This document shows positions 4,595-24,260 of a stretch of DNA of 42,531 nucleotides, in pieces. The notes under the pieces are model-generated. The model had not been told where the DNA came from, made no database searches, and saw only the letters and a list, made by a program, of their open reading frames with translations. The DNA lies in the NCBI GenBank assembly GCA_025927955.1, contig JAICKK010000008.1:1-42531 (forward strand), read 5' to 3'. The stretch comes from Nocardioidaceae bacterium (GTDB taxonomy: Bacteria; Actinomycetota; Actinomycetes; Propionibacteriales; Nocardioidaceae). Each line of letters starts with the position of its first letter. Positions within the stretch are counted from its first letter, which is position 1. A program made the translations under genes and the position numbers.

Positions 4595-4630
4595 ATTGCG
4601 TATCGCGAAATGAGTTGCTCCTTGCGCAAC
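4595..4630. promoter_or_regulatory. Paired 17-bp operator upstream of metF (predicted IclR-2 sites)
   Basis: Two 17-bp palindrome-like sites have centres at 4603 and 4622, exactly 19 bp apart. The proximal site, GTTGCTCCTTGCGCAAC (4614-4630), matches 11 of 12 arm bases of the GTTGCG-N5-CGCAAC consensus derived from the dehydrogenase and betB promoters. The distal site, ATTGCGTATCGCGAAAT (4595-4611), matches 9 of 12. The same pair geometry occurs at three other promoters in this window. Assignment to the IclR protein encoded at 19037-19810 is inference. Confidence 0.65.
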
Positions 4631-4663
4631 AGCGGAAGAAAGTTCGCGGCCTTCCTGGCCGAC

Positions 4664-5491
4664 ATGGTGTCCTCGGCTCGCTACGAGGTGCTCCCCACCG
4701 GCTCCATCGAGGACAAGGTGCTCGAGCACCTGTCCCGGGACCGCACGGTCACGGTGACGGCCTCGCCGGCCAAGGGCATCGAGGCGACGCTGTCACTGAC
4801 CGAGCGGCTCGCGCGGGCCGGCTACCACGCCGTACCCCACCTCGCGGCGCGGATGGTCAGCGGCCGAGCCGAGCTGAGCGAGATCTGCGCCCGGATGCGG
4901 GAGGCCGGCGTCACGACGGTGTTCGTGCCCGGCGGTGACCAGGACCCGCCCGCGGGGTCCTACACGGCCGCCCTCGACCTGCTGGCGGACCTCACCGAGC
5001 TCGGGCGGCCGTTCGCCGAGGTCGGCATCACCGGCTACCCCGAGTCGCACCCGACCATCAGCGACGACCTCACGATCCAGTCCATGTGGGACAAGCGCCA
5101 GCACGCCACCCACATCGTGAGCAACCTCAGCTTCGACCCGGCCGTCATCGGCTCGTGGGTGGACCGGCTGCGGGCCAGGGGCGTCACCATCCCGATGCTG
5201 CTCGGCATCCCGGGCCCGATCGACCGCGCCAAGCTGCTCTCGATGGCGACCAAGATCGGCGTCGGCGACTCCACCCGCTTCCTGGCCAAGCACAAGGGCA
5301 CGTTCGCCCGGCTGGCGGCGCCGGGCGGCTTCACCGGGGAGCGGTTCCTCGAGCAGTGTGCGCCGGTGCTGGCTCGCCCCGAGGCGCTGGTCACCGGCCT
5401 GCACGTCTACACGTTCAACCAGGTGGCCGAGACCGAGGCCTGGCGACGGGAGTACCTCGACCGGCTCACGGCGGTCGGGTCCCGCGGCTGA
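4664..5491 (+). CDS. metF: Methylenetetrahydrofolate reductase family protein (MetF-like)
   Basis: This 275-residue FAD-dependent TIM-barrel protein interconverts 5-methyl-THF and 5,10-methylene-THF. Family signatures are TVTASPAKGIEATLSLTERL near the N-terminus, HLAARMV, the FVPGGDQDPPAGSY loop, GITGYPESHP, and the C-terminal GLHVYTFNQVAETEAW. An in-frame ATG at 4610 would add 18 residues, but it would put the operator pair inside the coding region. The ATG at 4664 lies 42 bases after the proximal operator centre, matching the 31-49 base spacing at the other three operator-bearing genes, so I chose it. It has no strong ribosome site. Because it shares operators with betaine genes, I infer that it runs oxidatively to clear methyl-THF made by the corrinoid module. 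Its 3' end converges with the sulfatase gene. Confidence 0.88.
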   Translation: MVSSARYEVLPTGSIEDKVLEHLSRDRTVTVTASPAKGIEATLSLTERLARAGYHAVPHLAARMVSGRAELSEICARMREAGVTTVFVPGGDQDPPAGSYTAALDLLADLTELGRPFAEVGITGYPESHPTISDDLTIQSMWDKRQHATHIVSNLSFDPAVIGSWVDRLRARGVTIPMLLGIPGPIDRAKLLSMATKIGVGDSTRFLAKHKGTFARLAAPGGFTGERFLEQCAPVLARPEALVTGLHVYTFNQVAETEAWRREYLDRLTAVGSRG

Positions 5492-8528: not shown

Positions 8529-8559
8529 CCCTGGTCCGGGGAGGCGCCGCTCGCGTCGT

Positions 8560-8612: not shown

Positions 8613-8657
8613 AACATCTCTCGACGAGGCGTTGCTGCCGGCGGAGAAGAGGCTGTC

Positions 8658-10127
8658 GTGTCACAGACGGACGAGCACGCGACGGGGGACGAGGAGGAGG
8701 AGCAGAGCGTCCTCGCGGGGCTGGACTCGTCCGCGATGACCTCGCTCTACTGGTACCTCGCCCTGCTGGCCTGCATCGGCGGCTTCCTGTTCGGCTACGA
8801 CACGGCCGTCATCGGCTCGGTCCTCGACTTCATCCCCTACCACCTGTCGGCGTTCTGGACCGGCTACCTGGTGGCGGGGGCCTCGCTCGGTGCCGCGGTC
8901 GGCGCGCTGGCGGCCGGACCGCTGACCGACCGGTTCGGCCGGAAGTCGCTGCTGATGGCAGATGCTGCCATCTACGCCGTCGGCGCGCTCCTGTCGGCGT
9001 TTACCGTCGACGCCGCGATGCTGATCTCCTCACGGACGCTGATCGGCCTCGCGGTCGGCGCCGACTCGGCCATCGCCACGGCCTACATCGCGGAGTTCGC
9101 GCCCAAGGGGCGCCGCGGGCAGCTGAGCATCATCCAGCAGTGGATGATCACCGTCGGCATCCTCGTCTCCTACCTCCTGGCGCTGCTGATCTTCATCGTC
9201 GCTCCGGGCTCGGCGAGGACCCTGGACTGGCGGCTGATCCTCGGCCTCGGCGCGATCCCGGCGGCCGTCGCGGTCGCCCTGCGCGCCCGGATGCCCGAGT
9301 CGCCGAGGTGGCTGATCCAGCAGGGGCGCTACGCCGACACCCGCACGGCCCTCGGCAAGCTCGGCGTCGACGTGTCGGAGGACCAGGTACGACGGACCGC
9401 GGAGCGAATCCTCGAGGCCGAGCACCGCGACGAGCAGCGCAACGTGTGGACGCCGGGGGTCAAGCGGGCCCTCGCGGTGATCTCGGTGTTCTTCGTCTTC
9501 CAGCAGATCACCGGCATCAACGTGCCGTTCTACTACGGCCCGACGCTGCTCGGCGGCCTGTTCAAGCACCCGGGCGACACGGCCGTGCACGCCGCCATCG
9601 CCGGCCTCATCTCCGCGGCGATCCTCGGGGCGGTCAACGTGGTCGCCACCTACTTCGGCTTCCGGTTCATCGACAAGGCGGGGCGACGCCCGCTGGCGCT
9701 GATCGGCTACTCCGGGATGGTGGTGTTCATGCTGGTGGCCGCCGTGGGCGTCGCCTGGCTCACCGGCACCCCGAAGGTCGTCGTGGTCATGGTCGGGTTC
9801 TCGATCTTCATCGCCTCCTTCGCGATGGGCGTCGGCGGCACCGGATGGCTGCTGCAGGGCGAGGTCTTCCCCACCGCGGTCCGGGGCCGGGCCGCGGCCA
9901 CCGGGGCCGGGGTGAACTGGATCGCGAACTTCGCGCTGATCGAGGCGTTCCCGGCGATGCAGTCCGCGTTCGGGCTGGCCGGTGTGATGGTGCTGCTCGC
10001 GGCCCTGGCGCTGCTGGCGATCGGCTTCGTCGCGAAGTTCCTGCCCGAGACCAAGGGGCTCTCGGTCGAGGACGTCGTCGCCGTGTTCGAGCGGGAGGCG
10101 GCCGGGTCGGCGGCGACGTCCCGCTAG
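8658..10127 (+). CDS. MFS sugar porter family transporter
   Basis: This 489-residue, 12-helix transporter belongs to the sugar porter family (xylose, inositol, galactose and related proton symporters). Diagnostic motifs are GGFLFGYDTAVIG in helix 1, the loop motif DRFGRKSLL, PESPRWLIQQGR after helix 6, QQITGINVPFYYGP in helix 7, DKAGRRPLALIG, and PETKGLSVEDV after helix 12. Substrate is not readable from sequence. The GTG start has an AAGAGG ribosome site. It is preceded by a tandem 23-bp repeat that may control it. Its TAG stop lies inside the same CTAG tetranucleotide as the stop of the convergent DUF1638 gene. Confidence 0.92.
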   Translation: MSQTDEHATGDEEEEQSVLAGLDSSAMTSLYWYLALLACIGGFLFGYDTAVIGSVLDFIPYHLSAFWTGYLVAGASLGAAVGALAAGPLTDRFGRKSLLMADAAIYAVGALLSAFTVDAAMLISSRTLIGLAVGADSAIATAYIAEFAPKGRRGQLSIIQQWMITVGILVSYLLALLIFIVAPGSARTLDWRLILGLGAIPAAVAVALRARMPESPRWLIQQGRYADTRTALGKLGVDVSEDQVRRTAERILEAEHRDEQRNVWTPGVKRALAVISVFFVFQQITGINVPFYYGPTLLGGLFKHPGDTAVHAAIAGLISAAILGAVNVVATYFGFRFIDKAGRRPLALIGYSGMVVFMLVAAVGVAWLTGTPKVVVVMVGFSIFIASFAMGVGGTGWLLQGEVFPTAVRGRAAATGAGVNWIANFALIEAFPAMQSAFGLAGVMVLLAALALLAIGFVAKFLPETKGLSVEDVVAVFEREAAGSAATSR

Positions 10128-10822
10128 ACCCGCCCCGCCGCCGCAGCCTCGGCAGCCGCGAGGAGGCCGGCGCGGGCCAGCAGGTCGCGCAGCGAGCGCT
10201 CCAGGCCGGTGTGCCCGGTGGGGACGACGCTCAGCGGCAGCCCGACCCGGTCGGCGGCCCGCTGCGCCGCGGCCCGGAGCTCGGGGTCCGGCTTCTGCGC
10301 CAGCCACACCATCGAGGTGTAGTGCCCGAAGTAGTCCTCGCGCAGCTCGGGGTAGCGGTCCAGGCCCAGCTCGGCGACGACCGTGCGGTCGAACGAGCGC
10401 ACCAGGAAGTCGGTGAGCACGTAGGTGCCCGCCTGCTTCTCGAACATCGCCCGCATCCGCTCGGCGCCGCCGTAGACGTCGTAGCAGTGCAGCCCCTCCA
10501 GCCGGGCCAGCCCGTGCCGCCGGCACACCTCGTCCAGGGCCCCGTAGGTGCCGCAGTCGGCGTACCCGACGGCCACGGCGTGGTAGCGCTCGCGCAGGTC
10601 GAGCGCGAGCCGCTCCACCTCGCCGGCGATGCGCTCGGGACGGTTGTGCAGCAGCGGGGGGAGCGGGACCACGTCGACCGGCCAGCCCTGCTCGGCGACC
10701 ACCTCGGCGCACGGCTGGGCGATCGCGCCGCAGGCGACCAGGCCGATCCGGGGCTCAGCCGGGGAACGCGAGGAGGTCGACGAACCGGTCGTTGAAGTCG
10801 GTGCGGTCGGAGAGCTCGACAT
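10124..10822 (-). CDS. DUF1638 domain-containing protein
   Basis: This 232-residue protein of unknown function is the last gene of the corrinoid operon. Recognisable blocks are IGLVACGAIAQP, AVGYADCGTYGALDEVC and LEGLHCYDVYGG, with clustered Cys/His/Asp that could bind a metal or cofactor. The ATG at 10822 is the only plausible start. It follows an excellent GGAGGAGGTGG site and lies 68 bases inside the upstream activator gene. The first 22 residues are Ser/Thr rich and are read from the activator's C-terminal coding DNA. DUF1638 proteins are, to my recollection, found near corrinoid methyltransferase genes in methanogens and other anaerobes. I infer an accessory role in corrinoid or methyl-group handling. 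Confidence 0.85.
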   Translation of the reverse strand: MSSSPTAPTSTTGSSTSSRSPAEPRIGLVACGAIAQPCAEVVAEQGWPVDVVPLPPLLHNRPERIAGEVERLALDLRERYHAVAVGYADCGTYGALDEVCRRHGLARLEGLHCYDVYGGAERMRAMFEKQAGTYVLTDFLVRSFDRTVVAELGLDRYPELREDYFGHYTSMVWLAQKPDPELRAAAQRAADRVGLPLSVVPTGHTGLERSLRDLLARAGLLAAAEAAAAGRV

Positions 10823-12704
10823 AGGCCACCTCCTCCAGCAGGGCCAGGGCGCCGGCGCGCTCGCGGATGCTCAGCAGGCTCATCTTCGCGCCCTCGCCGG
10901 CGACGTTGCCCGCCGAGACGATGCGCAGCACCGGGATCTTGGGGACCAGGCCGATGCGGACGGCGGCGGCGGGCGAGAGGTAGCTGCCGAAGGACCCCGC
11001 GAGCAGCACCTGCTGCACGTCGGCGGCGGCGAGGCCGAGCTGCTCGAGCAGCAGCGTCCAGCCGGTGGCGATCGCGCCCTTGGCGAACTGCAGCTCCCGC
11101 ACGTCGCGCTGGGAGAGGTAGACCGACTCCTCGGGGGGGCTGCCCGGCTCCGGGCGGTGCAGCACGAACACCCGCTCCTGGCCGACGGCGGTGAGCCGGT
11201 CGGCGACGAAGGGTGCCGTCTCCTTGGCCCGCTCGTCGCTGACGAAGCGCCCGGAGCCGTCCAGCAGGCCGGCCCGGACCAGCTCGGAGACCACGTCGAC
11301 GAGCCCGGAGCCGCACAGCCCCTGCGGCTCCACGTCGCCGATCACGCCCAGCGACACCCCGCCCTCGATGTCCTGGTCGATGCGCACGACCTCGATGGCC
11401 CCGTCGGCGGCCCGCATCCCGCAGCGGATCGCGCCGCCCTCGAAGGCCGGTCCGGCGGGGGCCGCCGTCGACACGATGGTGTCGCCGTCGCTCAGCACGA
11501 TCTCGCAGTTGGTGCCCACGTCGATGAACAGCCGGACCCGCTTGTCGCGGTCCATCCCGGTCGCGAGCATGCCCGAGACGATGTCGCCCCCGACGTACGC
11601 GCCGAGCGCCGGGAAGACCACGGCCCGCGCCCGCGGGTGCAGCTCGAGCCCGAGGTCGCTGGCCAGCAGCGAGGGCAGGGTGGCGCTCGACATCACGAAC
11701 GGTGCCACGCCCAGGGGCTCCGGGTCGATGCCGAGGACCAGGGCCGTCATGGTCGCGTTGCCGGCGAGCGCGACCTCGTAGACCTCCTCGGGGGCGACGC
11801 CGGCCTCGTCCAGGACGTTGCCGGTCAGCTCGACCAGGGTCTCGCGGGCCAGGTCCCGCAGCCGGGGCAGCGCCTGGGGGTCCAGCATCGTGGCGCTGAT
11901 CCGGGTGATCACGTCGCCGCCGAACGGCTGCTGCTTGTTCAGCATCGACGCGACCGCGGCGGGCGTGCCCGTGGCGGTGTCGATGAGCGTCGCGACGACC
12001 GTCGTGGTGCCGAGGTCGAAGGCCACGGCGAACCGGCGCTGCGTGGTGTCGCCCGGCTCCACGTCGATGAGCGCCTCGTCGACCACCACGGCGGTGAGCT
12101 TGTAGTCGGACTGCCGGAGCACGCCGGGGAGCCGCCGCAGCACGTGCAGGTCGGGGGTCAGCTCGAGGTCGTCGATCGCGTCGGTCACCCGCTGGAGGTC
12201 CGTGCGCTGGTCGGAGAGCGTCGGCTCGGTCAGCTCGACGTAGCGCTTCTGGATCGCCGGGCGCAGGATCACCTGCCGGCCCACCCCGAGAGTGGCCGCC
12301 TTCGGCCGCGTGGTCAGCGGCGGCACCTCCACCTTCAGCGCTGCCGAGGCGTGCGCCAGGCACGCCAGCCGCCAGCCGGCCTCCAGCTGCTCGCCGGTGA
12401 ACGAGCGCGCGTCGAGCCGGTGCACGGGGACGTCACCGGAGAGCACCTGCACCTTGCACTTCTTGCAGGTGCCGTGCCCCCCGCACGTGGAGTCGATCGC
12501 GATGCCGTTCCAGCTGGCCGCGTCGAAGACGCTGACCCCCGTCGGGACGCGGACCTCGCGTCCCGACGGCGAGAAGGAGAGCTCGACCCGGCCGGACCCG
12601 TCGTGGGGTGTCGTCCCGGGGCCGTCCGGCGGGTCGATGAGCCCCTCCCGTCGAAGAGAGTCCACCTCGAAGTCGGGGGGACCGGACCGCTGTTCGTCGT
12701 CCAT
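10755..12704 (-). CDS. Reductive activator of corrinoid protein: [2Fe-2S] ferredoxin plus ASKHA ATPase (RACo/DUF4445 type)
   Basis: This 649-residue protein would reduce accidentally oxidised Co(II) corrinoid back to Co(I) in an ATP-dependent step. An N-terminal plant-type ferredoxin domain has four cysteines at 74, 80, 83 and 115 (CGGHGTCKKCK and LACLA). A middle linker follows, then an ASKHA ATPase domain beginning at the phosphate-1 motif AVAFDLGTTTVVATL (about 226-240), with FIDVGTNCEIVL and LLAGSFGSYLSP further on. The C-terminal 2x[4Fe-4S] domain of methanogen RamA is absent, so this is the RACo-type layout. The ATG at 12704 shares one base with the upstream stop. An ORF extension to 12926 overlaps the methyltransferase gene and is rejected. 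Calling it an activator for the neighbouring corrinoid protein is supported by the operon. Confidence 0.92.
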   Translation of the reverse strand: MDDEQRSGPPDFEVDSLRREGLIDPPDGPGTTPHDGSGRVELSFSPSGREVRVPTGVSVFDAASWNGIAIDSTCGGHGTCKKCKVQVLSGDVPVHRLDARSFTGEQLEAGWRLACLAHASAALKVEVPPLTTRPKAATLGVGRQVILRPAIQKRYVELTEPTLSDQRTDLQRVTDAIDDLELTPDLHVLRRLPGVLRQSDYKLTAVVVDEALIDVEPGDTTQRRFAVAFDLGTTTVVATLIDTATGTPAAVASMLNKQQPFGGDVITRISATMLDPQALPRLRDLARETLVELTGNVLDEAGVAPEEVYEVALAGNATMTALVLGIDPEPLGVAPFVMSSATLPSLLASDLGLELHPRARAVVFPALGAYVGGDIVSGMLATGMDRDKRVRLFIDVGTNCEIVLSDGDTIVSTAAPAGPAFEGGAIRCGMRAADGAIEVVRIDQDIEGGVSLGVIGDVEPQGLCGSGLVDVVSELVRAGLLDGSGRFVSDERAKETAPFVADRLTAVGQERVFVLHRPEPGSPPEESVYLSQRDVRELQFAKGAIATGWTLLLEQLGLAAADVQQVLLAGSFGSYLSPAAAVRIGLVPKIPVLRIVSAGNVAGEGAKMSLLSIRERAGALALLEEVAYVELSDRTDFNDRFVDLLAFPG

Positions 12705-13584
12705 CAGGCTTGTGCGGCCTGCTTCTTGCGGTGGCTCGCGATCCAGCTCGTGCCCCACTCGTCGTGGTTCAGCAGCAGGTCCGCGGCCTTGACGGCGTCC
12801 ACGATCTGCGGTGAGCGGGCGTCCATGATGGCGCTGGTCAGACCGGCGGTCATCGCCATCGGCAGGAACGCGGCGCCGATCGTGTGCCGGTCCGGCATGC
12901 CGAAGGAGACGTTGGAGGCGCCGCACGTCATGTTGAGGCCGTAGCCGTCGCGGATCCGGAGCATGGTCTCCAGCGTGGTCGTCACCATCGAGGTGTCCGC
13001 GCCGATGGGCATCGCGAGCGGGTCGATGACGATGTCCTGCTTGGCGATGCCGTACTCGCCGGTGGCCACCTCGACGATGTGCTGCACGAGCTCGAGGCGA
13101 CGGTCCGCCTCCATGGGGATCTCTTCGGCGTCGTTGGGCAGCGCGATGATCGCGGCGTCGTACTTCTTGACCAGCGGCAGGATCGCGGCCATCCGGTCGT
13201 CCTCGGCGGTGATCGAGTTGACCAGCGCCCGGCCGCGGTAGGCGGCCAGACCGGCCTCGATGGCCTCGACGACCGAGGAGTCGATGCAGATCGGCTTGTC
13301 GGTGAGCTCCTGCACGAGGGTGACCGCCTTGGCGAGCAGCTCGGGCTCGTCGGTCATCGGCACGCCCATGTTCACGTCGAGCACGTCCGCGCCGCCCTCG
13401 ACCTGCGCCTTGACGTCGCGCTCGATGGCCGACAGGTCGCCCGCGCGCAGCTGCTCCTGGAAGATGCGGCGACCGGTGGGGTTGATCCGCTCGCCGATCA
13501 GGCAGAACCTCCGCCCGTGGCCGATGACCACCTCGGTGCCCGTCCCGCGCAGGGTCGTCTCCAGCAGCTCGGCAGTGCTGGTGC

Positions 13585-13588
<4 letters not shown>
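12704..13588 (-). CDS. Methylcorrinoid:tetrahydrofolate methyltransferase (pterin-binding, MtgA/MtvA-like)
   Basis: This 294-residue TIM-barrel protein has a pterin-binding (DHPS-like) domain. Motifs include FCLIGERINPTGRR at the start, GGADVLDVNMGVP, PICIDSSVVEAIEAGL, LVNSITAEDDR, IVIDPLAMPIG and NMTCGASNVSFGMPDR. These match the MtgA, AcsE and MetH pterin-binding group, which moves a methyl group between a corrinoid and tetrahydrofolate. Here it would take the methyl from the upstream-encoded corrinoid protein and make 5-methyl-THF. ATGA overlaps the corrinoid gene stop, and its own TGA overlaps the activator ATG. The name MtgA assumes glycine betaine as methyl donor, which is inferred from context. 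Confidence 0.92.
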
Positions 13589-14246
<658 letters not shown>

Positions 14247-14250
<4 letters not shown>

Positions 14251-15041
14251 GCCACGCCTTCCTCGGTGGGGCTGTTGCTGGTGCGGGTGCGCCGGGGTGC
14301 CGGACGCCCGAGCAGTGCCGACAGGTGGTCGGCCTGCTGGATCAGGAGCCGGCCGAGCTGGTCCGCACGGCTCTGCAGCCGGGCGGTCGGGCCGGAGACG
14401 CCGATCGCGCACATCACGCCGTCACGGCCCTCGACCGGGGCGGCGATGGCGCTCAGCCCCGTCTCGAGCTCGTCGATGCTGACGGCGTAGCGCTGGCGGC
14501 GGACGAGGTCGAGCTCCTCGCGGAGCGCCTCGAGGGTCGTGATGGTCCGGTCGGTACGGCGCTCGAGGCGCCGCTCCGGCATCGGCAGGAGCCCGAAGGC
14601 GTAGAGCACCTTGCCCAGCGACGAGCAGTGCGAGGGCACGTCGACCTGGTTCCAGTCGCGCGCGGCCAGCAGGTAGGTCGACTCGACCTGGCCGACGTGC
14701 ACCACGCCGGTCCCGCGCGGGACGCCGAGATGGACGGTCTCGCCGGTGCGCTCGCCCACCGCCTCGAGCACCGGGCGCGCGATCCGGGCGACCTGGGGCC
14801 AGGGGTCGTGCACCGCGGCGTGCAGCGCGAACAGCGGTCCCGCCACGTAGCCGCCGGTCTCGTCGCGCTCGACCAGGTCGGTGCGCTCGAGTGCCGCGAG
14901 CAGCCGGGAGGTGGTGGACCGGGCCAGGCCGCTGACGTCGCTGAGCTCGGTGAAGCTGACCGGCTCGTCAGCGCGCACCACGAGGTCGATCAGCGCCGCG
15001 GCACGGTCGACGGCCTGGGTGCCGCCGGGGGTGCTGGCCAT
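14247..15041 (-). CDS. IclR family transcriptional regulator (corrinoid operon)
   Basis: This 264-residue regulator has an N-terminal winged helix-turn-helix at about residues 10-65 (FTELSDVSGLARSTTSRLLAALE) and a C-terminal IclR effector domain. Typical effector blocks are VEAVGE-type helix, CSSLGKVLYAF, YAVSIDELETGLSAIAAPV and GVSGPTARL. It is the first gene of the minus-strand corrinoid operon and is divergent from the MttB-family methyltransferase gene. The 11-9-11 inverted repeat in the shared intergenic region (15081-15111) is its likely operator. The effector is unknown, and a quaternary amine or its demethylated product would be logical. Confidence 0.93.
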
Positions 15042-15080
15042 CTGGTCCTCGGGTGTGCTCGACGCGATGTGCTGGGTGTT

Positions 15081-15111
15081 TCATCATGTGGAACCGACTC
15101 CCACATGATGA
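15081..15111. promoter_or_regulatory. Perfect 11-9-11 inverted repeat, predicted operator of the corrinoid module
   Basis: TCATCATGTGG at 15081-15091 and CCACATGATGA at 15101-15111 are exact reverse complements separated by 9 bases. The repeat is in the divergent control region, 40 bases upstream of the IclR gene. Just after it lies TAGGAT (15115-15120), a good -10 hexamer for the methyltransferase gene, so the repeat overlaps the expected RNA polymerase site. This sequence is unlike the GTTGCG/CGCAAC operators elsewhere in the window. Confidence 0.75.
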
Positions 15112-15152
15112 GGTTAGGATCTGATCGAGCGCCGGTCAAGCGCCTGCCGCAC

Positions 15153-15167
15153 ACCGGGTCCCCCGGT
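15153..15167 (+). other. Short hairpin in 5' leader of MttB-family gene
   Basis: ACCGGG-TCC-CCCGGT is a perfect six-base stem with a three-base loop inside the predicted leader of about 107 bases between the -10 element (15115-15120) and the ATG at 15234. It could be a minor regulatory structure. I saw no B12-box to suggest a cobalamin riboswitch. Confidence 0.3.
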
Positions 15168-15233
15168 CATGGCAGCATGCGGACCGTCGCCCTGGTCGGG
15201 GTCCGGTTCAACGCGTCACGTGGAGGTTGGTCA

Positions 15234-16673
15234 ATGTTCCGCAACACCATGCCGAGGTACGAGATCCTCTCCGAGGACGCCATGGCGAAGCTCGACGCCG
15301 GGTGGCGGCGCCTGGTCAGCGAGGTCGGCGTGGAGTTCGACAGCGACCGGGCGCTCGACCTGTTCCGCGAGGCGGGCCAGAAGGTCGAGGGCCAGTGCGT
15401 GTACCTCGACCCCGAGTTCGTGCTCGAGCAGGTCGCCAAGGCGCCGCACGAGTTCGACGTCCAGGCGCGCAACCCCGAGCACAGCATCCACATCGGCGGG
15501 GACTCCATGGCCTTCGGCGCCGTCTACGGGCCGCCGTTCGTCCGTGAGGGCGACGTCCGCCGGGACGCGACCATGAACGACTTCGAGCGGTTCACCAAGC
15601 TGGCGCAGTCCTTCCCGGTGCTCGACTCCGCCGGTGGCGTGATCTGCGAGCCCAACGACACGCCCCTGGACTCCCGCCACCTCGACATGACGTTCGCGCT
15701 GCAGACCCTGACCGACAAGGTCTACATGGGCAACGTGGTGTCCGGCGTCAACGCCGCCGACACGATCGCGATGGGCGAGATCCTGTTCGGCGGTCGGGAG
15801 ACCATCGAGCGGACGCCGGTGTCGATCTCGCTGATCAACTGCAACTCGCCGCTGCGCTGGGACTCCCGGATGCTGGAGGCGCTGTTCGAGTACACCGCCG
15901 CCGGCCAGCCCTGCGTGCTGACGCCGTTCATCCTCATGGGCGCGATGTCGCCGGTCACGATCCCCGCCGCCCTCGTGCAGCAGATCGCCGAGGCGCTGTC
16001 GGGCATCACGCTGGCCCAGCTCGTCCGCCCCGGCGCCCCGGTCATCTTCGGGTCGTTCCTGTCCAACATCGACATGCAGTCCGGGTCGCCGACGTTCGGC
16101 ACCCCCGAGTCGGGCATCGGGCTGCTGTGCACCGGTCAGATCGCCCGGCACTTCGGCCTGCCGTTCCGCTCCGGTGGCGGGCTGACGTCCTCGCAGGTCG
16201 CCGACGCGCAGGCCGGCTACGAGGCGCTGATGACGATGCTGCCGACGTTCCTGGCCGGCACCAACTGGGTGATGCACTCCGCGGGCTGGCTCGAGGGCGG
16301 CCTGGTGGCCGGCTTCGAGAAGTTCATCGTCGACGTGGAGATCCTCCAGATGATGCAGGCGGAGTTCCAGCCGCTGGAGATCGACGAGGACTCGCTCGCC
16401 TTCGGCGCGCACCAGGAGGTCGGCCACGGCGGTCACTTCCTCGGCGCCATGCACACCATGGAGCGGTTCCGCACCTGCTTCTACCGTCCGATGCTGTCCT
16501 CGTCGGACAACTACGAGCGGTGGATGCGCACCGGCGGCCTCGACGCGAACGCCCGGGCCACGAAGATCTACCAGAAGACGCTCGAGGAGTACGTCGCCCC
16601 GCCGCTCGACGACGCCGTCCGCGAGGAGCTGCAGGAGTACGTCGTACGCCGTCGCAAGGAGCTCGGCGACTGA
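15234..16673 (+). CDS. MttB-superfamily (non-pyrrolysine) methyltransferase, probable glycine betaine:corrinoid methyltransferase (MtgB-like)
   Basis: This 479-residue TIM-barrel enzyme transfers a methyl group from a quaternary amine to a Co(I) corrinoid protein. Family blocks include MFRNTMPRYEILSEDAM, VGVEFDSDRALDLFREAG, FGAVYGPPFVREGDVRRDA, VISGVNAADT-like VSGVNAADTIAMGEILFGG, FILMGAMSPVTIPAALVQQ and AFGAHQEVGHGGHFLGAMHT. The frame is complete with no in-frame TAG, so it is the pyrrolysine-free branch that contains MtgB. The ATG at 15234 has a TGGAGG site. It diverges from the operon for its corrinoid partner and activator. Betaine uptake, betaine synthesis and dimethylglycine oxidation genes nearby make glycine betaine the best substrate guess. 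Carnitine, proline betaine or another betaine remain possible. Confidence 0.9.
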   Translation: MFRNTMPRYEILSEDAMAKLDAGWRRLVSEVGVEFDSDRALDLFREAGQKVEGQCVYLDPEFVLEQVAKAPHEFDVQARNPEHSIHIGGDSMAFGAVYGPPFVREGDVRRDATMNDFERFTKLAQSFPVLDSAGGVICEPNDTPLDSRHLDMTFALQTLTDKVYMGNVVSGVNAADTIAMGEILFGGRETIERTPVSISLINCNSPLRWDSRMLEALFEYTAAGQPCVLTPFILMGAMSPVTIPAALVQQIAEALSGITLAQLVRPGAPVIFGSFLSNIDMQSGSPTFGTPESGIGLLCTGQIARHFGLPFRSGGGLTSSQVADAQAGYEALMTMLPTFLAGTNWVMHSAGWLEGGLVAGFEKFIVDVEILQMMQAEFQPLEIDEDSLAFGAHQEVGHGGHFLGAMHTMERFRTCFYRPMLSSSDNYERWMRTGGLDANARATKIYQKTLEEYVAPPLDDAVREELQEYVVRRRKELGD

Positions 16674-16692
16674 CCTGTTCGGGCGTGCCTGC

Positions 16693-16842: not shown

Positions 16843-16856
16843 GACGGCGCCCACGC

Positions 16857-18013: not shown

Positions 18014-18033
18014 GGGCGCCCGCCCCGGAGGGG

Positions 18034-18918
18034 TCAGCGGAAGACGACGGTCTTGTGGCCGTTGAGGAGGACGCGGGACTCGGCGTGCCAGCGGACGGCC
18101 CGGGAGAGGACCTGGCTCTCGACGTCGCGGCCGGCAGCCGCGAGCTCGGTGGGGCCGTAGCGGTGGTCCACCCGCATCACGTCCTGCTCGATGATCGGGC
18201 CCTCGTCGAGGTCGGCGGTCACGTAGTGCGCGGTCGCGCCGACCAGCTTGACACCCCGGTCGAACGCCTGGTGGTAGGGCCGGGCGCCCTTGAAGCTCGG
18301 CAGGAACGAGTGGTGGATGTTGATCGCCCGGCCCTCCAGGGCGCGACAGGTGTCGTCGGAGATCACCTGCATGTAGCGGGCCAGCACGACGAGGTGGACG
18401 TCGAGGGAGTCGACGAGGCCGAGCATCTGCCTCTCCGCGTCGGCCTTCGTCTCGGGCGTCACCGGGATGTGGTGGTAGGGCACCCCGTAGGACTTCACCA
18501 TCGCCTCGCAGTCGAGGTGGTTCGAGACCACGCCGGCCACGTCGATCTGCAGCGCGTCCCTGCTCCACCGGAAGAGCAGGTCGTTGAGGCAGTGGCTGAA
18601 CTTCGAGACCAGGATCAGCGTCCGGTACGGCGCGGTGGCGTCCCACAGCTCCCAGGTCATCGAGAACCGCTCGGCCACGCCCGCGAACGCCGAGCGCAGC
18701 GTCTCCAGGAGCTCGGGCACCGGCGAGGCGCTGTCCACCGCGAACTTCACCCTCATGAAGAAGCGGTCCTCGGCCAGGTCGTCGAACTGCTGGCTCTCCA
18801 AGATGTTGGCGTGCTGCTCGACGAGGAGCCCGGTCACGGCGTGCACGAGGCCGGGCCGGTCGGGACAGAGGAGGGTCAGCACGAACGTGGGCGCGCTCGA
18901 GGCGCTGCGGGCGGTCAT
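18034..18918 (-). CDS. purU: Formyltetrahydrofolate deformylase
   Basis: This 294-residue enzyme hydrolyses 10-formyl-THF to formate and THF. An N-terminal ACT domain (FVLTLLCPDRPGLVHAVTGLL, residues about 12-85) precedes a formyltransferase-fold domain. Family and active-site blocks include RTLILVSKFSHCLNDLLFRW, VVSNHLDCEAMVKSYGVPYHHIPV, ARYMQVISD, INIHHSFLPSFKGARPYHQA and ATAHYVTADLDEGPIIEQD, containing the catalytic N-x-H-x-S and the later Asp. It is divergent from the second IclR gene and shares its operator pair. In this setting PurU would discharge excess one-carbon units from betaine demethylation as formate and regenerate THF. Confidence 0.96.
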   Translation of the reverse strand: MTARSASSAPTFVLTLLCPDRPGLVHAVTGLLVEQHANILESQQFDDLAEDRFFMRVKFAVDSASPVPELLETLRSAFAGVAERFSMTWELWDATAPYRTLILVSKFSHCLNDLLFRWSRDALQIDVAGVVSNHLDCEAMVKSYGVPYHHIPVTPETKADAERQMLGLVDSLDVHLVVLARYMQVISDDTCRALEGRAINIHHSFLPSFKGARPYHQAFDRGVKLVGATAHYVTADLDEGPIIEQDVMRVDHRYGPTELAAAGRDVESQVLSRAVRWHAESRVLLNGHKTVVFR

Positions 18919-19036: not shown

Positions 19037-19810
19037 GTGACCCACGCCACCGAGACCGCTCCGGGCGTGCAGTCGGTCGACCGGGCGCTCACCATCCTCG
19101 GCATCCTGGCACGGCTGGGCGAGGCCGGGGTCACCGAGATCGCCGGCGAGCTCGCCGTCCACAAGAGCACCGCGTTCCGCCTGGTGGCGACGCTGGAGTC
19201 CCACGGCATGGTCGAGCAGAACGAGGACCGCGGCAAGTACCGTCTCGGCGTGGGGGTGCTCCGCCTGGCCGGGGCGACGACCGCCCGCCTCGACGTGGTC
19301 CAGGAGGCCCGCCCGGTCTGCCGCAAGCTGGCGGCCGACTCGGGGGAGACGGTCAACATCGCGGTCCTCTCCGACCGCTCGGCGCTCTACCTGGACCAGG
19401 TGGCCGGCCAGTCGGCGCTGCAGTCGCACAACTGGGTCGGCCAGCACATCCCGCTGCACGCCACCTCGAACGGCAAGGTGCTGCTCTCCGGTCTGTCCGG
19501 CGAGGAGGTGGACCAGCGGCTGCCCCGGCTGCCGTCCTACACCCCCGGCACCGTGACCAGCCGCGCCCGGCTGCGGCGCGAGCTCGCCGAGGTGCGCGAG
19601 CAGGGGTACGCCGTGGCGGTCGACGAGCTGGAGGTCGGGCTGACGGCCATCGCGGCACCCATCCGCAACGCGCACGGCGACGTCATCGCGTCGCTGAGCG
19701 TGTCCGGGCCCACGTTCCGGCTGGGCGAGACCAGGGTCAAGGAGCTGGTACCGGCCGTCGTCGACGCGTCCGACGAGGTGTCGAGGAGGCTAGGTCACGG
19801 AACGGCGTAG
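19037..19810 (+). CDS. IclR family transcriptional regulator (betaine catabolic genes)
   Basis: This 257-residue regulator begins with GTG at 19037. The winged helix-turn-helix spans about residues 10-65 (GVTEIAGELAVHKSTAFRLVATLESHGMV). The effector-binding domain has LHATSNGKVLLSGL, YAVAVDELEVGLTAIAAPIRNAHGD and LSVSGPTFRLGE. It is divergent from purU and precedes betB. Operator pairs of one design stand before this gene, betB, the dimethylglycine dehydrogenase gene and metF, which makes it the prime candidate for the binding protein. Whether it represses or activates is not shown. The sites lie at or after predicted transcription starts, which favours repression. Confidence 0.94.
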   Translation: MTHATETAPGVQSVDRALTILGILARLGEAGVTEIAGELAVHKSTAFRLVATLESHGMVEQNEDRGKYRLGVGVLRLAGATTARLDVVQEARPVCRKLAADSGETVNIAVLSDRSALYLDQVAGQSALQSHNWVGQHIPLHATSNGKVLLSGLSGEEVDQRLPRLPSYTPGTVTSRARLRRELAEVREQGYAVAVDELEVGLTAIAAPIRNAHGDVIASLSVSGPTFRLGETRVKELVPAVVDASDEVSRRLGHGTA

Positions 19811-19919: not shown

Positions 19920-21401
19920 GTGCCGGATCTTTACATCGGGGGCCGATGGGAGGCCGCTCGCGACGGCGGCCGGCGGGAGATCCGCTGTCCGGCGGACGGC
20001 AGCCTCGTGGCCGAGGTGGACGAGGCCGGCCCCGAGGACAGCGCCGCGGCCGTCGAGGCGGCACGCAGCGCCTTCGACGACGGCGCCTGGTCGGGGTCGT
20101 CGTCGCTGGAGCGCGGCCGCCTGCTGCACCGGGTCGCCGACCTCCTCGAGCGCGACAAGGCCGACGTGGCCCGCGCCGAGTCGCTGGACACCGGCAAGCG
20201 CTACGTCGAGAGCCAGTACGACGTCGACGACGTCGTCGGCGTCTTCCGGCACTACGGCAACGTGGCCGCCGAGGACGCCGGACGGCTGGTGGACACCGGA
20301 CGCCCCGACGTCGTGAGCCGGGTCGTGCACGAGCCGATCGGCGTCTGCGGCCTGATCACCCCGTGGAACTACCCGCTGCTGCAGACCTCCTGGAAGGTGG
20401 CGCCGGCGCTGGCGGCGGGCAACACGTTCGTGCTCAAGCCCAGCGAGCTGACGCCGTCGACAGCGGTGCACCTCATGCGGCTGCTCGAGGAGGCGGGCGT
20501 GCCGCCCGGCGTGGCGAACCTGGTCCTCGGCGCCGGCCCGCGGGCGGGCGCCCCGCTCAGCGAGCACCCCCGCGTGGACCTGGTCTCGTTCACCGGGGGC
20601 CTGGCCACCGGCAAGCGGATCATGGTCGCCGCCGCGGAGACGGTCAAGAAGGTCGCCCTCGAGCTGGGCGGCAAGAACCCCAACGTGGTCTTCGCCGACG
20701 CCGACCTCGACGCGGCCATGGACTTCGCGCTCACCGCGGTCTTCCTGCACTCCGGCCAGGTCTGCTCCGCCGGCGCCCGGCTGGTCATCGAGGAGTCGGT
20801 CCACGACGCCTTCGTCGACGAGCTGGTGGACCGGGCGGGCCGGATCCGCCTCGGTGGTCCCTTCGACGACCGCGCCGAGACCGGGCCGCTGATCTCCGAG
20901 GCGCACCGCGACAAGGTCGAGCAGTACGTCGCGCTCGGGCTCAAGGAGGGCGCGACACTGCGCTGCGGCGGGGCCCGGCCCCCCGGCGACGCGCTCGCCG
21001 CCGGGTTCTACTACCTGCCCACCATCCTCGACGGCTGCGACAGCTCCATGTCCGTCGTGCACGACGAGTCGTTCGGCCCGGTGCTGACCGTCGAGACGTT
21101 CCGCACCGAGGACGAGGCGGTCGCGGTCGCCAACGACAGCATCTACGGCCTCGCCGGTGCCGTGTGGACCCAGAACGCCGGCAGGGCCGAGCGGGTCGCG
21201 GCGCGGATGCGGATGGGCACCGTGTGGATCAACGACTACCACCCGTACGTCCCGCAGGCCGAGTGGGGCGGCTACAAGCAGTCCGGGATCGGGCGCGAGC
21301 TCGGCGCCGCGGGCCTCGAGGAGTACCGCGAGTCCAAGCACATCTGGCACAACGTCCGGCCCGCGCCGCAACGCTGGTTCGACGGGGCCGACGAGACCTG
21401 A
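19920..21401 (+). CDS. betB: Betaine aldehyde dehydrogenase
   Basis: This 493-residue aldehyde dehydrogenase would oxidise betaine aldehyde to glycine betaine with NAD(P)+. The cofactor and catalytic set is complete: Asn150 in TPWNYPLL, Glu248 in [18 protein letters not shown], and Cys282 in [12 protein letters not shown]. The C-terminal motif is [14 protein letters not shown]. The GTG at 19920 gives a normal family length and N-terminus (PDLYIGGRW). An upstream ATG at 19860 would lie inside the operator pair and is rejected. It is the first gene of betB-betA-proV-proW-proX. The specific substrate rests on adjacency to betA and betaine transport, because general aldehyde dehydrogenases share these motifs. 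Confidence 0.93.
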
Positions 21402-21411
21402 GGAGGTGGAC

Positions 21412-23127
21412 GTGAGCAGCCAGGACGCAAGGTACGACTACGTCATCGTGGGCGGGGGGTCGGCCGGCTGCGCGCTGGCGAACCGGCTCAGCGCCGATCC
21501 CGCCACGACGGTCCTCGTGCTCGAGGCCGGTCGCAGCGACTTCCGGCTCGACCCGTTCATCCACATGCCCGCCGCGCTGCCGTACCCGATCGGCAACCGG
21601 CTCTACGACTGGAAGTACGAGTCGGAGCCCGAGCCGTACATGGACGGGCGACGCGTCTACCACGCGCGCGGCAAGGTCCTCGGCGGCTCGAGCAGCATCA
21701 ACGGGATGATCTTCCAGCGCGGCAACCCGCTGGACTACGAGCGGTGGGCCGCGGACAAGGGCATGGAGTCGTGGGACTACGCCCACTGCCTGCCCTACTT
21801 CAAGCGCATGGAGACGTGCCTGGCCGGCGCCGACCTGTGGCGCGGTGGCAGCGGACCGCTGGTGATGGAGCGCGGCCCGGCGACCAGCCCGCTGTTCGGC
21901 GCGTTCTTCGAGGCCGTGCAGCAGGCCGGCCACCCGCTCACCGACGACGTCAACGGCTACCGGCAGGAGGGGTTCGCGCCCTTCGACCGCAACGTCCACC
22001 GGGGGCGGCGCCTCAGCGCGGCGCGGGCCTACCTGCACCCCGTGCTCGACCGCAAGAACCTCCGCGTCGAGACGCTCGCGATGGTGACGGGCCTCACCCG
22101 GCAGGGCGCGCGGGTCACCGGCGTGGAGTACCACCGTCCCGGGCGCGGCCACCGCCGGGCGCGCGCCGGTGAGGTCATCCTCTGCGGCGGCGCGATCAAC
22201 TCCCCGCAGCTGCTGCTGCTGTCCGGCATCGGTCCGAAGGAGGATCTGGAGCGGCTCGGCGTCGACGTCGTCGCGGACCTGCCCGGGGTCGGCGCCAACC
22301 TGCAGGACCACCTCGAGGTCTACATCCAGTACGCCTCCAAGCAGCCGGTGTCGATCGGCCCGTGGCTCAAGCACCGGCACAAGCCCCGCATCGGTGCGGA
22401 GTGGCTGTTCCTGCGCCGCGGCGTCGGCTCCTCGAACCACTTCGAGGCCGGCGGCTTCATCCGCAGCAACGACCGGGTCGACTACCCGAACCTGATGTTC
22501 CACTTCCTGCCCATCGCGATCCGGTACGACGGGTCGCGGCCGGCCGCCGAGCACGGCTACCAGGTGCACATCGGGCCGATGTACTCCGACGTGCGCGGGT
22601 CGCTCACGCTGACGTCGCGCGACCCCCTCGAGCACCCGGCACTGCGGTTCAACTACCTCTCGACGGAGAACGACCGGCGGGAGTGGATAGAGATGGTGCG
22701 CGCGGCCCGCCACATCCTCAACCAGCCCGCGTTCGACGTCTTCAACGCCGGTGAGCTCTCGCCCGGTCCGTCGGTGGAGAGCGACCAGGAGATCCTCGAC
22801 TGGGTGGCCAAGGACGCCGAGACCGCGCTGCATCCGTCCTGCACCGCGCGGATGGGCGTGGACGAGATGTCGGTGCTGGACCCCGAGACGCTGAGGGTCC
22901 ACGGCGTCGACGGGCTGCGGGTCGTGGACGCGTCCGCGATGCCCTACATCACCAACGGCAACATCTACGCGCCGGTGATGATGCTGGCCGAGAAGGCCGC
23001 CGACCTGATCGCCGGCAACACCCCGCTGCCGCCCTCGGACGCGCCGTTCTACCGCTACCGCGAGCACGACCCGCTCTACCCACCCGGGCACCCGCTGCAC
23101 GAGCTGAGCCAAGGAGGTCGACGATGA
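21412..23127 (+). CDS. betA: Choline dehydrogenase-like GMC oxidoreductase
   Basis: This 571-residue FAD enzyme of the GMC family would oxidise choline to betaine aldehyde. The N-terminal ADP-binding motif is [18 protein letters not shown] signatures are [15 protein letters not shown] and [15 protein letters not shown]. Catalytic His474 is in [10 protein letters not shown], and the second Asn of TNGNIYAP (N517) aligns with the catalytic Asn/His. Proteobacterial BetA usually has GNLNAP here, so the Tyr two residues after N517 is a local difference and the substrate range may differ. A strong AGGAGGTG site overlaps the betB stop, and the betA stop overlaps the proV ATG (ATGA), showing tight coupling. 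Confidence 0.9.
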
Positions 23128-24260
23128 CACAGACGCGGACGTACGACGACCAGAACGACGGCCAGAAGGACGGCCAGAAGGACGGCCAGAGGGGCGGCCG
23201 TAACGACGGGGCTCCGGACGGGGCCGGCGAGTCGGCCCTGTCGGTCCGCGACCTGTGGAAGATCTTCGGGGCCCGGGCCGACAAGGTCATCGGCACCCCG
23301 GACGCCGACCTGCCGCGCAAGCAGCTGCAGGCCAAGACCGGCTGCGTCGCCGCGGTCAAGGACGTGTCGTTCGACGTCCGGCCCGGAGAGGTGTTCGTGG
23401 TGATGGGGCTGTCCGGCTCCGGCAAGTCCACGCTGGTGCGCCTGCTCACCCGGCTCATCGAGCCGACCGCCGGCACGGTGACGATCGGCGGGGAGGACGT
23501 CACGAAGGCCGACGCGGGCAGGCTGCGCGACCTGCGCCGGCACCACGTCGCGATGGTCTTCCAGCACTTCGGTCTGCTGCCGCACCGCACGGTGATGGAC
23601 AACGTCGGCTTCGGGCTGGAGGTCCGCGGCGTCGCGAAGGGAGAGCGCCGAGCGAGGGCCCAGGAGATGGTCGACCTGGTGGGCCTGGCCGGCAACGAGG
23701 GGTCCTTCCCCGACCAGCTCTCGGGCGGCATGCAGCAGCGGGTGGGCCTGGCCCGGGCGCTCGCGGTCGACCCGACCCTGATGATGTTCGACGAGCCCTT
23801 CTCCGCCCTGGACCCGCTCATCCGGCGCGACATGCAGAACGAGGTCATCCGCCTGCACCACGAGGTCGGCAAGACGATGGTCTTCATCACCCATGACCTG
23901 CAGGAGGCGCTCAAGCTCGGCGACCGGATCCTCATCATGCGCGACGGCGAGATCGTGCAGATCGGTGAGCCGGCGGAGATCGTCGCGTCACCGGCCGACG
24001 ACTACGTCCGCGACTTCGTCAGCGACGTCCCACGCTCGCACGTGCTGACCCTGCGCTACGTGTGCCGCCGCCCCGACGGCGGCGATCCCGGCGAGGGGCC
24101 GGCCCTCCAGGCCGACGAGGTGGTGCGCGACGCCGCCCGTCAGGTCCTCGCCGCGCACGGGCCGGTGCGGGTGTACGACGGCGAGGACTTCCTCGGCATC
24201 GTCGACGACGAGGACATCCTGCGCGTGGTGGTCGCGGAGGAGGAGGCGGTGGGCTCGTGA
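23124..24260 (+). CDS. proV: Glycine betaine/proline ABC transporter ATP-binding protein
   Basis: This 378-residue ATPase energises quaternary amine import. It has Walker [11 protein letters not shown]-loop [13 protein letters not shown], signature [16 protein letters not shown], Walker [14 protein letters not shown] and H-loop [16 protein letters not shown]-terminal CBS-like segment ([19 protein letters not shown]) is typical of ProV/OpuAA and may sense ionic strength. The N-terminal 35 residues are a non-conserved hydrophilic tail with DGQK repeats. ATGA overlap with betA and GTGA overlap with proW indicate one operon. Confidence 0.96.
23157..23192 (+). repeat. Three tandem 12-bp repeats in proV 5' coding region
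   Basis: The unit GACGGCCAGAAG occurs three times in a row, the last with one change, encoding (DGQK)2-DGQR. The repeat keeps frame and sits in a tail outside the ATPase fold, so copy-number change would be tolerated. Confidence 0.8.

What the first reader, a model, noticed from the sequence alone, without database searches (positions are those of the whole stretch)
10124..16673. Complete corrinoid-dependent quaternary amine demethylation module in an apparently aerobic actinobacterium
Seen: an MttB-family methyltransferase without in-frame TAG, a corrinoid protein with GDVHDIG, a pterin-binding methyltransferase, a [2Fe-2S]/ASKHA activator, a DUF1638 protein and an IclR regulator, all overlapping or divergent. 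Known: this component set (MtgB, MtgC, MtgA and a RACE/RACo activator) was characterised for glycine betaine in anaerobes such as Desulfitobacterium and acetogens. Inference: beside betAB, proVWX and dimethylglycine dehydrogenase it supplies the missing first demethylation of glycine betaine. The same window encodes KatG, so the system would have to work with Co(I) chemistry in an oxygen-using cell.
Basis: partly seen in the sequence, partly recalled or inferred. Interest (0 to 1): 0.9.

Follow-up and report, generated by a model that had tools for sequence, protein, structure and literature searches.

The report
B12-dependent betaine demethylation genes in actinobacteria
An oxygen-using actinobacterium carries a full vitamin-B12-based gene set that very probably strips one methyl group from the common osmolyte glycine betaine and hands it to folate; the same kind of system was shown in 2025 in a marine aerobic proteobacterium, but its actinobacterial branch, including small genomes where it seems to stand in for normal methionine synthase, looks new.

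Summary
Window 10124-16673 holds DUF1638, a RACo-type activator, a folate:corrinoid methyltransferase, a corrinoid protein, an IclR regulator and a divergent, pyrrolysine-free MttB-family enzyme. The block is conserved in Nocardioidaceae and other Actinomycetes. Choline oxidation, betaine uptake, a dimethylglycine-dehydrogenase-type protein and PurU accompany it. Glycine betaine is the best-supported substrate, from gene context; pocket residues do not discriminate between quaternary amines. The claimed surprise is largely pre-empted: aerobic Ruegeria pomeroyi uses MtgBCD with RamA and DUF1638 (PMC12478193), and Paracoccus and Sinorhizobium replicons carry the same set. What looks new is the actinobacterial branch. 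In one streamlined family (carriers 1.3-2.1 Mb; probably Nanopelagicaceae/acI) the module co-occurs with a stand-alone homocysteine-methyltransferase subunit (both 18, only one of them 3, of 121 genomes), and MetH is mostly lost (present in 2 of 13 carriers, 17 of 20 non-carriers). Nothing was tested biochemically.

The parts
4610..5491 (+). MetF2: divergent single-chain methylenetetrahydrofolate reductase, proposed methyl-THF oxidation step
   Evidence: PF02219 E 7.3e-10 above cut-off; TIGR00676 E 8e-14 below cut-off. Found in 58 of 61 named loci with 9.9 kb left flank; within 300 bp of DUF1638 in 38 of the 61 named loci that have both, 300-1500 bp in 14, further in 9. The genome's canonical MetF is elsewhere
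10124..10822 (-). DUF1638 protein, presumed helper of corrinoid reactivation; Cys31, Cys90, Cys113, His59, His112 invariant in 85 of 85 sequences (83 actinobacterial, 2 alphaproteobacterial)
   Evidence: PF07796, alignment, AF2 model pLDDT 90 with no PDB match at E <= 0.001
10755..12704 (-). RACo-type reductive activator: [2Fe-2S] domain plus ASKHA ATPase
   Evidence: four Pfam domains above cut-off; PDB 3zyy E 2.7e-98
12704..13588 (-). MtgD (= MtgA): methylcorrinoid/tetrahydrofolate methyltransferase
   Evidence: PF00809; NF005719 319 bits, cut-off 259
13585..14250 (-). MtgC: corrinoid protein with DxHxxG motif (GDVHDIG)
   Evidence: PF02310, PF02607; best NCBIfam model MtgC NF047996, 198 bits, below cut-off 370
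14247..15041 (-). IclR-family regulator, divergent from mtgB
   Evidence: PF09339, PF01614; present in 74 of 75 named loci with enough flank
15081..15111 (.). operator-like inverted repeat TCATCATGTGG-9 nt-CCACATGATGA in the iclR-mtgB gap, followed by a TAGGAT -10-like site
   Evidence: a dyad of this form in 39 of 81 intergenic stretches; the window's arm pair in 4, the pair CATGATGTGG/CCACATCATG (both arms changed together) in 26. Binding not tested
15234..16673 (+). MtgB: MttB-family (non-pyrrolysine) quaternary amine:corrinoid methyltransferase, proposed glycine betaine methyltransferase
   Evidence: PF06253 E 1.4e-188; PDB 9yce glycine betaine methyltransferase E 3.5e-121
18034..18918 (-). 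PurU, formyltetrahydrofolate deformylase (would release the oxidised methyl as formate)
   Evidence: TIGR00655 333 bits, cut-off 286; found right of mtgB in 47 of 62 named loci with 9.9 kb right flank
19037..19810 (+). second IclR-family regulator
   Evidence: an IclR-family match right of mtgB in 57 of 62 named loci
19920..21401 (+). BetB-like betaine aldehyde dehydrogenase
   Evidence: TIGR01804 611 bits, below cut-off 669
21406..23127 (+). BetA choline dehydrogenase
   Evidence: TIGR01810 820 bits, cut-off 732
23124..24260 (+). ProV-like ABC ATPase for betaine/choline uptake
   Evidence: TIGR01186 351 bits, cut-off 327
24257..26260 (+). ProW-like permease, assigned from sequence reading and position
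   Evidence: no family scan was run on it
26315..27301 (+). ProX-like betaine/choline binding protein
   Evidence: TIGR03414 E 1.5e-15, below cut-off
27480..30035 (+). dimethylglycine/sarcosine dehydrogenase-type protein (FAD oxidoreductase plus GcvT folate domain)
   Evidence: PF01266, PF16350, PF01571, PF08669; no NCBIfam model above cut-off
30045..31822 (+). EtfB and EtfA, likely electron acceptor of the dehydrogenase
   Evidence: PF01012, PF00766

Best explanation
It is an aerobic-type MtgBCD glycine betaine demethylase. MtgB transfers one N-methyl of glycine betaine to Co(I) on MtgC, leaving dimethylglycine. MtgD moves the methyl from methyl-Co(III)-MtgC to tetrahydrofolate, and MetF2 oxidises methyl-THF to methylene-THF. 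FolD-type steps (FolD was not searched for) and PurU then release formate. When Co(I) is oxidised to Co(II) the RACo-type ATPase, fed electrons through its [2Fe-2S] domain and helped by DUF1638, resets it. BetA and BetB make glycine betaine from choline, a ProVWX-like ABC system imports these compounds, and the DMGDH/GcvT flavoprotein with ETF removes later methyls. IclR controls the divergent promoter. Shown by sequence: gene content, family membership, synteny. Inferred: substrate, direction of methyl flow, roles of MetF2 and DUF1638, regulation.
For: Families and motifs. Conserved block: MtgC 74 of 74, MtgD 72 of 72, RACo 65 of 65, DUF1638 64 of 64 named loci with enough flank. At least one choline/betaine/DMG gene in 53 of 55 named loci >= 19 kb and in 18 of 20 other loci. 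PDB relatives include the glycine betaine methyltransferase 9yce (E 3.5e-121) and 2qne. The four pocket residues proposed from docking for D. hafniense MtgB (Y94, N199, R309, H345; PMC6855144, passages seen) are Y99, N203, R313, H349 here, while Pyl-MttB has V, C, Y, Y. The same gene set on Paracoccus methylovorus and Sinorhizobium meliloti replicons, and mutants showing that mtgC and mtgD are needed for betaine growth in R. pomeroyi (PMC12478193; abstract, passages, Results part 1, the distribution section and Discussion seen). One PF06253 gene in the genome; no GbcA at cut-off.
Against: No biochemical test here, and in PMC12478193 MtgB itself was assigned by proteomics and homology, not by a mutant (as far as the parts read show). 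In the MtgB tree the actinobacterial clade joins neither D. hafniense MtgB nor the S. meliloti/Paracoccus cluster-linked MtgB (4yyc clade), but Leisingera and S. meliloti paralogs of unproved substrate. Identity is 41% to 2qne and 45% to 4yyc. The pocket residues are conserved in 145-148 of 148 rows of non-Pyl homologues (duplicates included), also in other contexts, so they do not prove betaine specificity; a fifth proposed residue (F353) is Gly here. Two of two f18 loci (8-9 Mb genomes) and two named loci lack choline/betaine genes nearby. MtgC scores below NCBI's MtgC cut-off. The genome is 87% complete, so absences are weak.
Confidence: 0.82

Rival explanations
1. The MttB-family enzyme demethylates another trimethylammonium compound (choline, carnitine, proline betaine or other) and glycine betaine is handled otherwise.
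For: MttB-superfamily relatives with different substrates share one corrinoid partner in Eubacterium (PMC12478193, Discussion); MthB of E. limosum did not use glycine betaine, choline, carnitine or proline betaine but used phosphocholine (PMC12155760, passages seen); the clade differs from characterised MtgB; pocket residues do not discriminate.
Against: BetA and BetB beside it make glycine betaine from choline and a DMGDH-type protein would take the product; one PF06253 gene in the genome and no GbcA at cut-off.
Confidence: 0.12
2. A BHMT or a Rieske monooxygenase elsewhere in the genome does the first demethylation and the MtgBCD block has a minor role.
For: A BHMT-like protein (L003; PRK07534 293 bits, cut-off 338) and three PF00848 proteins whose best NCBIfam model is GbcA exist in the genome.
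Against: L003 scores 188 bits against PDB methionine synthase and 91 against PDB BHMT, and PMC12478193 argues that such bacterial proteins are MtgE; Rieske scores are 156-189 against 670; these genes lie on other contigs than the window.
Confidence: 0.07
3. The module mainly works as a split methionine synthase (methyl-THF to Co to homocysteine via MtgE), with MtgB as an extra methyl entry. This overlaps with the best explanation and is not exclusive of it.
For: MtgE co-occurs with MtgC in family f27 and MetH is mostly lost in carriers there; mtgE within the left flank in 9 of 61 named loci; R. pomeroyi mtgC and mtgD mutants are methionine auxotrophs (PMC12478193).
Against: In the window's genome MetH is present and the MtgE-like gene is on another contig; 8 of 8 family f1 carriers have MetH, as do both g76 carriers of f27, so methionine is not the only reason to keep the block.
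Confidence: 0.15

Closest known systems
MtgBCD(E) of Ruegeria pomeroyi DSS-3 (PMC12478193)
   Same: MtgB, MtgC, MtgD, a reductive activator, DUF1638 and a second MetF; aerobic host; later DMG and sarcosine demethylation.
   Different: Host phylum; genes in one choline-to-glycine block; IclR neighbours; MetH present in the window's genome. R. pomeroyi sequences were not in hand, so no direct alignment was made.
Sinorhizobium meliloti Ak57 and Paracoccus methylovorus p1 clusters
   Same: Same annotated set: ASKHA protein, MtgD, MTHFR, MTHFR C-terminal protein, DUF1638, MtgC, MtgB; S. meliloti also a formyl transferase and bmt.
   Different: Identities 45-46% MtgB, 46% MtgC, 45-47% MtgD, 28-31% activator, 38-42% DUF1638; MetVF-type reductase pair instead of the single-chain MetF2; another MtgB clade.
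Desulfitobacterium hafniense MtgB (PDB 2qne, 9yce) with its MtgC and MtgA
   Same: MttB-family enzyme (41% identity), corrinoid protein, folate methyltransferase; four proposed pocket residues kept.
   Different: Anaerobe; in the tree it falls outside the clade of the 65 other non-Pyl sequences, support 0.94. Only its MtgB was compared.
BHMT and GbcAB monooxygenase
   Same: Same net first demethylation of glycine betaine.
   Different: Unrelated mechanisms; not met at curated cut-offs in this 87% complete genome.

Membership tests
MttB superfamily, non-pyrrolysine (PF06253) | PF06253 over the whole protein | tested here: met
   E 1.4e-188, 627 bits, cut-off 25
MttB superfamily, non-pyrrolysine (PF06253) | no in-frame TAG / no pyrrolysine | tested here: met
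   no stops inside; Leu318 at the Pyl column
MtgB glycine betaine methyltransferase | methyl transfer from glycine betaine to Co(I) | not testable with these tools
   needs an enzyme assay
MtgB glycine betaine methyltransferase | pocket residues proposed for D. hafniense MtgB | tested here: inconclusive
   4 of 5 kept (Y99, N203, R313, H349; F353 is G357) but also kept in 145-148 of 148 rows of non-Pyl homologues
MtgB glycine betaine methyltransferase | clusters with characterised MtgB | tested here: not met
   separate clade from 2qne and from 4yyc; only these anchors were in hand
MtgC corrinoid protein | B12-binding fold with DxHxxG motif | tested here: met
   PF02310, PF02607, GDVHDIG
MtgC corrinoid protein | NCBI MtgC model cut-off | tested here: not met
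   best model NF047996, 198 bits, cut-off 370
MtgD/MtgA folate methyltransferase | methyl-THF:corrinoid methyltransferase model | tested here: met
   NF005719 319 bits, cut-off 259
RACo-type reductive activator | Fer2 plus RACo linker, middle and ASKHA domains | tested here: met
   all four Pfam models above cut-off; the narrower AcsV model NF040756 is below its cut-off (428 of 800)
R. pomeroyi-type aerobic MtgBCD(E) system | B, C, D, activator and DUF1638 all present | tested here: met
R. pomeroyi-type aerobic MtgBCD(E) system | second MetF encoded with the module | tested here: met
   MetF2, 4.6 kb from DUF1638 in the window, closer in most relatives
R. pomeroyi-type aerobic MtgBCD(E) system | MetH absent, so that the module also makes methionine | tested here: not met
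   MetH at G000:C32; no MetH in 11 of 13 f27 carriers
GbcA glycine betaine monooxygenase | NF058607 cut-off 670 bits | tested here: not met
   158, 156 and 189 bits for the three PF00848 proteins

The most novel reading that the evidence does not exclude
In streamlined actinobacteria (family f27, probably Nanopelagicaceae/acI), MtgC, MtgD and MtgE are the only methionine synthase, and MtgB plugs into the same corrinoid carrier. Glycine betaine could then methylate homocysteine directly over cobalt without folate, a multi-protein B12-dependent counterpart of BHMT. Cells that cannot make B12 would tie methionine supply and betaine use to imported B12. In Nocardioidaceae the MetVF-type reductase pair of this block was swapped for a divergent single-chain MetF2.
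Probability: 0.45. Interest if true: 0.75.

Novelty: new member of a known kind. Interest (0 to 1): 0.55.

Why it matters
It extends aerobic B12-dependent glycine betaine demethylation, proved only recently in a marine proteobacterium, to cultured Nocardioides and other Actinomycetes and, by inference, to abundant freshwater bacteria. It offers a route for betaine use where GbcAB and true BHMT are not found, ties it to vitamin B12, and predicts which actinobacteria could do without MetH because a shared corrinoid module makes methionine. It also singles out DUF1638, with three invariant cysteines and no confident PDB fold match, as an untested redox or corrinoid helper.

Tried and rejected
Pyrrolysine: rejected, no in-frame stop and Leu at that column. 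B12 or other riboswitches: none at Rfam gathering score in window, L122, L126, L127, L130, L037 (6 of the 12 sources first asked for). DUF1638 fold: no Foldseek match at E <= 0.001, best E 7.6e-3; weak PDB sequence hits to viral glycoprotein L (E 0.001-0.002) look like chance. GbcA and BHMT as alternative routes: below curated cut-offs. Pocket residues as proof of betaine specificity: rejected because they do not discriminate. Literature: 10 searches of the held library listed no paper whose title or abstract opening describes an actinobacterial MtgBCD module; PMC12478193 states that 5% of its marine mtgC reads were Actinomycetota. Only eight papers were opened, most for passages only; most subscription papers and all preprints are outside that library.

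Corrections to my own notes: entry 1 says 11 f27 carriers, the count is 13; entry 2 says that in PMC5301498 the betaine transporter and formate dehydrogenase are only in acI-C1, but the table shows acI-A7.

Rows dropped: of 41 class genomes with a match, G043 (only a 41% paralog fragment) was not given, so 40 of 41 were examined. In one search, 20 of the 102 f27 genomes without an MtgC match were examined; one of them, G403, turned out to have MtgE and may be a carrier with a missing contig. The MtgB tree used 67 of 151 rows. Stretches around the block were fetched from 20 of the 40 close carriers. Results against a simple swap: both g76 carriers keep MetH, and weak partial MetE-family matches occur in G000 and in two of four f40 genomes.


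Full report
What is there. Searches confirm the six genes at the stated coordinates, with overlaps that suggest an operon (IclR, MtgC, MtgD, RACo, DUF1638 on the minus strand) and a divergent MttB-family gene. The MttB protein has no in-frame stop; Leu318 sits where PDB 7xcl (MttB) has pyrrolysine. PDB relatives are 4yyc, 2qne and 9yce 'glycine betaine methyltransferase', E 3e-132 to 4e-121; identity is 45% to 4yyc, 41% to 2qne, 26% to Pyl-MttB. That 2qne is D. hafniense MtgB is stated in PMC9842639; that 4yyc is from S. meliloti is recalled, and in the tree it pairs with the S. meliloti locus L153. The activator has all RACo domains and a [2Fe-2S] domain. The folate methyltransferase passes the NCBI cut-off for methyl-THF:corrinoid methyltransferase.

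Missed parts. A gene at 4610-5491 is a divergent methylenetetrahydrofolate reductase. 58 of 61 named loci with 9.9 kb of left flank have it; where both are present it is within 300 bp of DUF1638 in 38 of 61. In the window 4.6 kb (a sulfatase-family gene, other ORFs and a sugar porter) lie between them. A canonical MetF is elsewhere in the genome. In other families two genes sit between mtgC and mtgD: a PF12225 protein (called MetV here, a recalled name) and a MetF; the MetF is found in 17 of 20 such unnamed loci and in none of the 80 named loci at E 1e-8. Paracoccus and Sinorhizobium have the same pair. So Nocardioidaceae and related named loci seem to have swapped MetVF for a single-chain MetF2 (inference). 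PurU at 18034-18918 passes its cut-off; FTHFS is right of mtgB in 19 of 62 named loci, and formate dehydrogenase and FdhD genes lie near the block in L122.

Who has it. The genome is a 3.79 Mb draft in 284 contigs, 87% complete, taken as Nocardioidaceae because the nearest named loci are Nocardioidaceae MAGs (93 and 92% MtgB identity) and Nocardioides isolates. In a class sample 41 of 394 genomes match at 1e-60 and 40 of 394 have the close form, at least 66% identity. In a phylum sample 29 of 396 match at 1e-100, apart from G000 and G671 at 38-47%. The genome-contig scan confirmed 434 relatives, of which the best 80 were kept.

Substrate. Of 55 named loci of at least 19 kb, 53 have at least one choline, betaine or dimethylglycine gene in reach (BetA or BetB 42, ProVWX-type 44, DMGDH 20); of 20 further loci, 18 (identity floors were set for BetA, BetB, ProV and DMGDH, none for ProW and ProX). 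The exceptions are L062, L112 and both f18 loci. The chain choline, betaine aldehyde, glycine betaine, dimethylglycine lacks only the betaine demethylation step, and the genome shows one PF06253 gene. Three PF00848 proteins are far below the GbcA cut-off. The BHMT-like protein L003 scores higher against PDB MetH than against PDB BHMT. The pocket residues proposed from docking in PMC6855144 (passages seen) are kept in four of five places, but also in 145-148 of 148 rows of non-Pyl homologues, so they only separate these enzymes from Pyl-MttB. In a 67-sequence tree the actinobacterial clade (50 sequences, support 0.95) joins one Jatrophihabitans paralog and then Leisingera and S. meliloti paralogs (0.995), not the S. 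meliloti/Paracoccus cluster enzyme and not D. hafniense MtgB. Substrate therefore rests on gene context and remains an inference.

Prior work. PMC12478193 (PNAS 2025; abstract, passages, first part of Results, distribution section and Discussion seen) shows that aerobic Ruegeria pomeroyi needs MtgC and MtgD for glycine betaine growth and for methionine, and that two MtgB-type proteins, RamA, DUF1638 and MetF2 rise on N-osmolytes; 108 of its 156 marine genomes with MtgBCD lack MetH. It mentions Actinomycetota as 5% of mtgC reads.

A second role. PF02574 searches show MetH (open frame above 1000 aa) in 19 of 40 carrier genomes: 8 of 8 in the window's family f1, 5 of 5 in f18, 2 of 13 in f27, 0 of 4 in f40, and 4 of 9 in f26, f35, f39 and f42 together; one further genome (G060, 926 aa) is ambiguous. 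In f27 none of 13 carriers has a MetE-family match. Among 20 of the 102 f27 genomes without an MtgC match, 17 have MetH. Fisher p 1.6e-4 ignores relatedness; the contrast also appears within genera g32 and g100, but not in g76, whose two carriers keep MetH. MtgC is found in 19 of 121 f27 genomes, an MtgE-like protein in 20 of 121, both in 18; G473 has only MtgC, G403 and G453 only MtgE. The stand-alone homocysteine methyltransferases of five non-carriers (L164-L167, L170) read like MmuM (typed by eye after the profiles of L003 and L004) and do not match MtgE at 1e-80. All 13 f27 carriers keep a stand-alone protein of about 300 aa.

What f27 is. Its carriers are 1.3-2.1 Mb; six of the carrier loci have 46-50% G+C. 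G193 is one contig of 1,506,415 bases; PMC5301498 (passages and tables seen) gives acI-A7 strain IMCC19121 as 1.506 Mbp, 45.5% G+C, and marks it as the only one of four acI strains with a glycine betaine/proline ABC transporter, formate dehydrogenase and molybdenum cofactor, all four lacking B12 synthesis. That fits f27 being Nanopelagicaceae and G193 being that strain, but it is an inference from size and traits.

Regulation and unknown part. The iclR-mtgB gap has an 11-bp inverted repeat at 15081-15111. A dyad of this form occurs in 39 of 81 intergenic stretches; in 26 both arms carry the changed letter together (CATGATGTGG/CCACATCATG), in 4 the window's form. DUF1638 has Cys31, Cys90, Cys113, His59 and His112 invariant in 85 of 85 sequences; its AF2 model (pLDDT 90) has no PDB match at E <= 0.001. 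PMC12478193 names DUF1638 as predicted to help recharge cobalamin; an Fe-S or corrinoid site is my guess.

Verdict. A real, well conserved module and a new branch of a known kind of system. The most interesting part is not oxygen tolerance, already shown in Ruegeria, but the likely sharing of one corrinoid carrier by betaine demethylation and methionine synthesis in streamlined actinobacteria.

Noticed in passing
window 16674-16861 and 17955-18037: GC-rich palindromic repeat (core GTTTCCCTGGGGGCCCAGGGAAAC): three copies right after mtgB and one 1.2 kb on, flanking an AbiEi_4-type gene (16857-17810) between mtgB and purU; none expected in 100 shuffles; exact matches in 3 of 172 loci, all three copies of the window itself.
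   Followed up: partly
window 10124-10822: DUF1638: three cysteines and two histidines invariant in 85 of 85 sequences, well-predicted model without a confident PDB match.
   Followed up: partly
L122-L126, L140, L141 (unnamed streamlined genomes, family f27): The block sits with betAB- and proVWX-like genes and, in L122, formate dehydrogenase and FdhD genes; may explain why acI-A7 alone among four acI strains has a betaine transporter and formate dehydrogenase.
   Followed up: partly
window 4610-5491: Best plasmid-borne matches to MetF2 are mostly haloarchaeal (39-43% identity) plus Rhodococcus opacus (39%), hinting at transfer of this divergent reductase.
   Followed up: no
G671 (unnamed, same phylum): Four MtgB paralogs of 72, 65, 59 and 56% identity in one genome, suggesting several methylated substrates.
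   Followed up: no
L154 (Leisingera sp. plasmid), L156 (S. meliloti plasmid): MttB-family genes without mtgC or mtgD within 9 kb, beside MmgE/PrpD and hydantoinase genes or a betaine ABC and FAD oxidoreductase; among the sampled sequences the nearest outgroup to the actinobacterial enzymes.
   Followed up: no
window 5498-10127: A sulfatase-family gene, other ORFs and a sugar porter MFS gene separate MetF2 from DUF1638 here, unlike in most relatives.
   Followed up: partly
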